Assembly: GCF_000407445.1 (NCBI RefSeq) | Contig: NZ_ASWB01000001.1 | Location: forward strand, 310,001-374,000 | Reading direction: 5' to 3' | Origin: Enterococcus moraviensis ATCC BAA-383 | GTDB lineage: Bacteria; Bacillota; Bacilli; Lactobacillales; Enterococcaceae | Length of the DNA: 64,000 nt | Part shown: piece after piece, positions 39,833-40,107 of the stretch | Position numbering within the stretch: the stretch's first letter is position 1 | Layout of the letters: each line of letters starts with the position of its first letter | Position numbers and translations under genes: made by a program | Notes under the pieces: model-generated | The model's database searches: none | What the model saw: the letters and a program-made list of their open reading frames with translations, nothing else | Told to the model about the DNA's origin: nothing

Positions 39833-39882
39833 TTTACAAACCGAACAAACATTCGTATAATAACTATACAAACGTTTGTTCG
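39833..39882 (+). promoter_or_regulatory. SOS-type promoter: sigma-A promoter with two LexA boxes
   Basis: TTTACA (39833-39838), 17 bp and TATAAT (39856-39861) form a strong promoter. CGAACAAACATTCG (39842-39855) fills the spacer and matches the Firmicute LexA box CGAACNNNNGTTYG with one mismatch. CAAACGTTTGTTCG (39869-39882), just after the expected start site, is a perfect match on the minus strand (CGAACAAACGTTTG). Repression by LexA and induction by DNA damage are inferred. Confidence 0.8.
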
Positions 39883-39906
39883 ATAAAAATTATGAGGTGA
39901 TTAAGA

Positions 39907-40107
39907 ATGAAAGCAGTTCGTCGTGGCGGGTTATTATTTGTTGTATTGATTATTGGTATTTTCTTAGGAACATTAGGCTTACAGTCCGCTTTACTTATTG
40001 TTAGCCCTCTATTTATTATATGGTTCATGTTGTGGGACGAAAAAAGATACACGCACAATAGAAAAAAAAATGAACACCAACAATATGTCTATCGTAAGTA
40101 CCCATAG
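39907..40107 (+). CDS. Small membrane protein under predicted LexA control
   Basis: 66 aa, not assigned to a family I know. A basic N-terminus (MKAVRRGG), then one long or two short hydrophobic segments (about residues 8-26 and 29-45), then a charged 20-residue tail rich in Lys, Arg, His and Tyr. GAGGTGATT stands 6-7 bp before the ATG, so translation should be strong. The double LexA box in its promoter, the monocistronic layout and the small size recall SOS-induced division inhibitors such as YneA and SosA. It has no LysM domain and its topology differs, so any division-inhibitor role is a guess. Toxin-like or membrane-stress roles are alternatives. Confidence 0.78.
   Translation: MKAVRRGGLLFVVLIIGIFLGTLGLQSALLIVSPLFIIWFMLWDEKRYTHNRKKNEHQQYVYRKYP

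What the first reader, a model, noticed from the sequence alone, without database searches (positions are those of the whole stretch)
39833..40107. Predicted SOS-induced small membrane protein with a double LexA box
A strong sigma-A promoter (TTTACA, 17 bp, TATAAT) has one LexA-type box in its spacer and a second, perfect one at the start site. It drives only a 66-aa membrane protein with a basic N-terminus and a charged tail. SOS-regulated small membrane proteins often stop cell division (YneA, SosA), but this one lacks LysM and does not look like them. It may be a new type of SOS effector. What is seen: the boxes, promoter, SD and protein features. What is inferred: LexA control and function.
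Basis: partly seen in the sequence, partly recalled or inferred. Interest (0 to 1): 0.78.

Follow-up and report, generated by a model that had tools for sequence, protein, structure and literature searches.

The report
Conserved SOS-controlled enterococcal membrane hairpin protein
Enterococci and vagococci carry a small, unnamed membrane protein behind a promoter with two DNA-damage (LexA) switches, often right next to the lexA gene, and it may be their DNA-damage brake on cell division, which is not yet shown by experiment.

Summary
A near-consensus promoter, with one LexA-type box in its spacer and one at the start site, drives a lone 66-aa ORF with a terminator-like repeat on each side. Neither box is perfect (one mismatch each to CGAAC-N4-GTTCG), and the box count alone is not above chance. 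Conservation is decisive: 60 of 61 chromosomal-type homologues keep both boxes, 53 of these at 27-bp spacing. In 35 of 60 genomes the gene directly follows lexA; the one homologue without boxes starts 28 bp behind lexA. Box 1 is the same 14-mer as the box before a RecA-like ORF of this genome. The protein is under purifying selection, has no named family, and is a predicted two-helix membrane hairpin with a conserved W-D motif. It was found almost only in two host families, which gave no strong YneA match, and it is related to early proteins of enterococcal phages (phrog_1270, function unknown). Best explanation: a LexA-repressed effector standing where YneA/SosA stand elsewhere, most likely a membrane brake on division. 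LexA control is strongly supported; the division function is inferred.

The parts
39777..39815 (+). Terminator-like hairpin and T-run behind the upstream gene (TrhA/hemolysin-III family, ends at 39746; start codon not settled), isolating the unit
   Evidence: family of the upstream gene:
39833..39838 (+). -35 element TTTACA
   Evidence: the pattern TTTAC-N18-TAT(A/T)NT is found upstream of 58 of 61 chromosomal-type homologues
39842..39855 (+). LexA-type box 1, fills the spacer up to the -10; identical 14-mer before a RecA-like ORF in this genome (C4:76954)
39856..39861 (+). -10 element TATAAT
39869..39882 (+). LexA-type box 2, over the predicted start site, 27 bp from box 1; same form as the box before lexA
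39894..39899 (+). Shine-Dalgarno GAGGTG
   Evidence: sequence
39907..40107 (+). 66-aa small membrane protein, no named family, related to phrog_1270
   Evidence: (pN/pS 0.16)
39910..39966 (+). Predicted helix 1 (residues 2-20), basic N-terminus MKAVRR
   Evidence: mean pLDDT of the blocks 69 and 76
39979..40098 (+). Predicted helix 2 (residues 25-64): hydrophobic up to about residue 43, then a basic, presumably cytoplasmic tail (inferred)
40033..40050 (+). WDEKRY (residues 43-48) at the membrane exit; W39, W43 and D44 invariant in 32 aligned chromosomal-type members
40138..40183 (.). Perfect 18-nt inverted repeat with A/T runs: probable terminator shared with the convergent apt gene (40184-40696, minus strand)
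   Evidence: apt:

Best explanation
A LexA-repressed SOS effector of Enterococcaceae and the Vagococcus family. Shown by sequence: a strong promoter with two LexA-type operators, one in the -35/-10 spacer and one over the start site, drives a lone gene for a small basic-hydrophobic-basic protein, conserved together with the operators and often beside lexA. Inferred: after DNA damage RecA triggers LexA self-cleavage, both operators empty, and the protein is made fast from an open leader; it inserts as a two-helix hairpin with both ends inside and, by helix contacts in the membrane and its W-D motif and basic tail, holds up septation (most likely at a late divisome component such as FtsW/PBP2b) until repair is done. 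It would do for enterococci what YneA does in Bacillus/Listeria and SosA in Staphylococcus. Temperate phages carry relatives in their early operon, which fits a tool that stops host division. I put LexA control at about 0.95 and the division brake at about 0.45; the confidence below is for the whole statement.
For: Twin boxes at 60 of 61 chromosomal-type hits (69 hits in all, 8 prophage-type by their neighbours), 27-bp spacing in 53 of the 60. lexA directly upstream on the same strand in 35 of 60 genomes (from the coordinates). In G043 the gene starts 28 bp behind lexA and has no boxes of its own, while lexA has one. Box 1 identical to the box before a RecA-like ORF. Purifying selection, pN/pS 0.16 in 21 sequences. 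YneA profile: strong hits in 5 of 5 f7 genomes, two of which supplied the profile; no strong hit in 59 f1 and 5 f8 genomes. YnzC-like motif and no LysM motif on the divergent side of lexA in 36 of 36 f1/f8 loci (35 genomes); the LysM motif test finds 4 of 5 f7 loci. Published logic: Gram-positive SOS division inhibitors are commonly co-localised with lexA (PMC6851548, passages), and small membrane proteins blocking a late step of division are called widespread (PMC13396833, passages). Phage relatives lie in early operons.
Against: No expression, binding or phenotype data. The box count alone is not above chance. The gene is downstream of lexA and codirectional, whereas sosA and the YneA-like ORFs seen here are divergent. 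Topology differs: YneA and SosA have one membrane helix and an outside C-terminal part needed for activity, here the C-terminus is predicted inside. 4 of 59 f1 genomes gave no hit (one only 76% complete) and no YneA hit either, so the gene is not indispensable. The f2, f4, f6 and f9 genomes searched, most with LexA, gave neither gene. In 25 of 60 genomes, the window's among them, the gene is not beside lexA.
Confidence: 0.45

Rival explanations
1. A TisB-like SOS membrane peptide: it permeabilises or depolarises the membrane after severe damage, giving dormancy or death rather than a division checkpoint.
For: Small, hydrophobic with basic ends, hairpin model; two operators on a near-consensus promoter suggest that leakage is costly (inference). 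One minus-strand promoter-like site at 40249-40221 points towards the ORF, so an antisense transcript is conceivable.
Against: That site is followed by the inverted repeat 40138-40183; no other minus-strand promoter-like site between 39860 and 40200. No Rfam match in 38900-40800. The first 93 nt of the predicted mRNA are less structured than shuffles, z +1.8, unlike the tisB type (recalled). Invariant W-D residues. Phage relatives seen lie in the early region.
Confidence: 0.2
2. A gene related to phage biology (superinfection exclusion, control of prophage induction or lysis timing) kept by the host and placed under LexA so that it acts when prophages are induced.
For: 29 of 32 members match phrog_1270; 63 of the 65 genomes with a phrog_1270 match in a sample of 295 of the order are of f1 or f8 (the profile does not separate host and phage copies).
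Against: Stable place beside lexA or apt; purifying selection; no PADLOC match in 32 members; no LexA-type box at up to 1 mismatch in 200 bp upstream of the phage copies, 0 of 32 viral loci (one, L245, has no upstream DNA).
Confidence: 0.15
3. A regulator of an envelope protein (transporter, lipid or wall enzyme) that adjusts the membrane during DNA damage, without stopping division.
For: Many small membrane proteins regulate larger ones (recalled); weak matches to transporter helices in Pfam: MFS_1 in 13 of 32 members, best E 1.1e-5, the window protein's below cut-off.
Against: No partner gene in synteny; the recurring neighbours are lexA and apt.
Confidence: 0.15
4. The boxes belong to another repressor, or are inherited with the promoter without LexA control.
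For: Loose box patterns are not enriched in the genome over the reversed control.
Against: Box 1 equals the box before a RecA-like ORF, box 2 has the form of the lexA box; half-sites stay while central bases and flanks vary in 33 non-redundant promoters; linkage to lexA in 35 of 60 genomes.
Confidence: 0.05

Closest known systems
YneA (Bacillus subtilis, Listeria), SOS cell-division inhibitor
   Same: Small membrane protein gene next to lexA and presumed under LexA
   Different: YneA has one membrane helix plus an outside LysM domain (passages) and the YneA-like ORFs seen here are divergent from lexA; this one has two predicted helices, no LysM and lies downstream. No sequence similarity (hhalign probability 0.6%, BLASTP E 16)
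SosA (Staphylococcus aureus)
   Same: Small SOS-induced membrane protein without LysM, linked to lexA (passages)
   Different: SosA is 77 aa with one helix and an extracellular C-terminus needed for activity (passages); no direct sequence comparison with SosA was run here
phrog_1270, with early proteins of Enterococcus phages phiFL1-3 (unknown function)
   Same: E 2.5e-9 for the window protein, 29 of 32 members match; host and phage profiles 99.4% in hhalign
   Different: 0 of 32 viral loci have a LexA-type box at up to 1 mismatch within 200 bp upstream (one has no upstream DNA); they lie in phage early regions
TisB/DinQ-type SOS membrane peptides (Escherichia coli)
   Same: SOS-controlled small hydrophobic protein
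   Different: Those have one helix and antisense-RNA control (TisB recalled; DinQ from the abstract start in the listing); no such RNA signal was found here

Membership tests
LexA (SOS) regulon | LexA box overlapping the promoter | tested here: met
   two boxes at 1 mismatch each, in the spacer and at the start; box count alone not above chance
LexA (SOS) regulon | Box conserved in front of orthologues | tested here: met
   60 of 61 chromosomal-type hits, controls 3 of 1259; 37 of 38 loci of named species, largely the same assemblies
LexA (SOS) regulon | LexA binding and damage induction | not testable with these tools
   no expression or binding data at hand
YneA family | LysM domain | tested here: not met
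   no LysM match in Pfam or NCBIfam
YneA family | Sequence homology to YneA | tested here: not met
   hhalign probability 0.6%, BLASTP E 16
YneA/SosA-type functional class | Gene linked to lexA | tested here: met
   35 of 60 genomes, downstream instead of divergent; not in the window's own genus
YneA/SosA-type functional class | One membrane helix with outside C-terminus | tested here: not met
   two predicted helices, basic tail; prediction only, mean pLDDT 72.8
YneA/SosA-type functional class | Inhibits division | not testable with these tools
   needs microscopy
phrog_1270 | Profile match | tested here: met
   E 2.5e-9, 29 of 32 members
Type I toxin-antitoxin | Antisense or structured-leader control | tested here: inconclusive
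   no Rfam hit, leader less structured than shuffles; one promoter-like site at 40249-40221 points towards the ORF from beyond the terminator repeat

The most novel reading that the evidence does not exclude
A new protein family is the SOS division checkpoint of enterococci and vagococci, replacing YneA/SosA with an unrelated two-helix hairpin, and temperate phages use the same protein early in lytic growth: one membrane tool drawn on by both the LexA response and phage induction.
Probability: 0.35. Interest if true: 0.78.

Novelty: new variant of a known kind. Interest (0 to 1): 0.62.

Why it matters
How enterococci stop dividing during DNA repair did not appear in the titles and abstract starts that my eight paper searches listed. 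This gene is a direct candidate, present in an E. faecalis-like genome and in E. lactis and other named species, with clear tests. It also gives the phage family phrog_1270 a first functional hint.

Tried and rejected
Listeria as a carrier: the tblastn hit in a record named 'Listeria phage LM 4-11-1' aligns at 95-96% to Enterococcus lactis over its two long pieces, so it is an enterococcal contig; family f7, Listeria-like by my inference, has YneA instead. NCBIfam NF010021, which I recalled as YneA, is PRK13499.1-1 with 344 positions, a wrong lead; replaced by a profile of two YneA-like ORFs beside lexA, so SosA-like or strongly diverged proteins could be missed. That profile also gave weak hits (E 8e-6 to 6e-5) in three f1 genomes in ORFs of 213-275 aa, away from this gene, and in one f5 genome. 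Weak Pfam and NCBIfam hits: the window protein's are below cut-off; for other members only E-values were shown. Foldseek against viral models: 25 matches, none with E at or below 0.001. Solved structures: best E 0.55. Viral contigs: no relative confirmed with the window protein or the L062 protein. Rfam: nothing. Two class-wide hits outside f1/f8 carry stops and are borderline; likewise one f7 hit inside a 452-aa ORF and one f2 hit at E 8e-4. Single boxes elsewhere in the genome were mostly inside ORFs or without a clear target among the 20 stretches viewed, so I draw no regulon from them. In one search eight loci were read on the wrong strand; corrected. The promoter rows were picked by a -35/-10 pattern, so the constancy of those two elements there is by construction (dropped: L041, L044, L046).

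Full report
What is there. The unit is compact: terminator-like hairpin of a TrhA/hemolysin-III gene (39777-39815), promoter TTTACA-17-TATAAT, box 1 in the spacer (39842-39855), box 2 over the likely start (39869-39882), GAGGTG, a 66-aa ORF (39907-40107), and a perfect 18-nt inverted repeat (40138-40183) before the convergent apt gene. The two boxes mirror each other: the outer half-sites (CGAAC left, GTTCG right) are exact, the inner ones each have one change, and with the -10 they form an 18-nt inverted repeat at 89% complementarity.

Is it more than chance? Counting boxes, no: two sites at up to one mismatch against 0.92 expected in the window (22 of 100 shuffles reach two); 29 in the genome against 70 for the reversed control; CGAACNNNNRTTYG gives 16 against 20. 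The pairing is unusual: of the 29 genome sites only these two lie within 100 bp. Conservation settles it. Of 98 relatives 60 have a homologue (55 of 59 of the window's family f1, 5 of 5 of f8, none of the other 34), 69 hits in all. Two boxes within 130 bp upstream (up to 2 mismatches) occur at 60 of 69; the nine without are L046 and eight that I class as prophage-type by their neighbours (L061-L064, L066-L069). Spacing is 27 bp in 53 of 60, 33 in four, 29 in two, 28 in one. In the same loci 3 of 1259 other 130-bp windows have two such boxes and 59 have at least one. In 33 promoters reduced to below 85% identity the half-sites stay while box centres and flanks vary (these rows were picked by their -35/-10 pattern, so those elements say nothing there). 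Of 38 loci of named species, largely the same assemblies, 37 have both boxes and 25 have a LexA motif upstream.

LexA link. In 35 of 60 genomes the gene follows lexA on the same strand, 41-411 bp after the LexA profile match; in the other 25, all 22 of the window's genus among them, lexA is 50-196 kb away on the opposite strand (19) or on another contig (6). The simplest reading (inferred) is an ancestral order tkt-ynzC-lexA-gene-apt-recJ, seen whole in L142, broken by rearrangement in the window's genus, where the gene stays beside apt. In G043 (L046/L142) the gene starts 28 bp behind lexA and has no boxes of its own, while lexA has one: control kept by another route. Box 1 is the same 14-mer as the box before a RecA-like ORF (RecA recognised by eye), and box 2 has the form of the lexA box.

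The protein. Purifying selection, pN/pS 0.16 over 21 sequences. AlphaFold2 on 32 sequences gives helices 2-20 and 25-64 (mean pLDDT 72.8, pTM 0.43): a hairpin with basic ends, both presumably inside. W39, W43 and D44 are invariant in those 32. No named family: the window protein's Pfam and NCBIfam hits are below cut-off; among 32 members MFS_1 matches 13 (best E 1.1e-5) and no NCBIfam family matches two; nothing in PADLOC or Rfam; no close solved relative. 29 of 32 members match phrog_1270, a phage family of unknown function. hhalign of host against phage-type alignments gives 99.4% and, as a check on hydrophobic bias, 0.6% against YneA. In the contexts that I viewed (phiFL2A; eight prophage loci; 7 of 32 viral loci) the relatives lie in the early region, behind HTH or Rha-type genes and, in phiFL2A, before RecE/RecT-like genes. 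No viral locus has a LexA-type box at up to 1 mismatch in 200 bp upstream (0 of 32, one without upstream DNA). In 295 genomes of the order 65 match phrog_1270, 63 of them f1 or f8 (host and phage copies together); in a class sample 11 of 398 match the host profile, 9 in f1/f8 and two borderline with stops. f1 contains Enterococcus and f8 Vagococcus species (contig lengths shared).

What it may replace. A YneA profile made from two ORFs divergent from lexA hits 5 of 5 f7 genomes at E 4e-28 or better (two of the five are its source); f1 has three weak hits in longer ORFs, f8 none. On the divergent side of lexA a YnzC-like motif and no LysM motif were found at 32 of 32 f1 and 4 of 4 f8 loci (35 genomes); the same motif test finds LysM at 4 of 5 f7 loci. 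None of the five f7 genomes has this gene. So in the genomes searched the two do not occur together; f2, f4, f6 and f9 genomes have neither. The SosA authors took the position beside lexA as a hint of a division inhibitor and then showed it (PMC6851548, passages); small membrane proteins blocking a late step of division are called widespread in SOS (PMC13396833, passages). By that logic a division brake is the likeliest role. Gene order and topology differ and YneA homology fails, so it is not a YneA family member; SosA was not compared directly. Rivals are a pore-forming peptide, a phage-interaction factor and a regulator of another envelope protein.

Prior knowledge. Eight paper searches showed no paper on this gene among the rows listed; I saw passages of three papers. 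The lactic-acid-bacteria regulon reconstruction (PMC3616900, passages) studied Streptococcaceae and Lactobacillaceae; Enterococcaceae are named in a passage only as having LexA and CodY. Most subscription papers are not held, so novelty in print is not proven.

Noticed in passing
OR847331.1 (L107) and OR846632.1 (L106): Records named as Listeria and Enterococcus phages from wastewater look like host chromosome pieces: L107 is 95-96% identical to Enterococcus lactis over its two long pieces (the Listeria label looks wrong), L106 is 99.4% identical over 3.2 kb to genome G023.
   Followed up: yes
L105 (phage phiFL2A, match at 4501-4693): The phage relative in the phiFL2A record matches in two pieces and no annotated gene covers most of it, whereas in phiFL1A and phiFL3A a gene (gp11 or gp12) is annotated under the match.
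   Followed up: no
   Followed up: partly
L026, L031, L032, L034 (genus g29, Vagococcus-like): The spacing between the two boxes is 33 bp instead of 27, about half a helical turn more, with both boxes kept.
   Followed up: no
G028, G033, G042 (family f1): Three genomes at 95-100% completeness gave no hit for this gene or YneA; in G028 lexA and apt still lie within 3 kb of each other without it.
   Followed up: no
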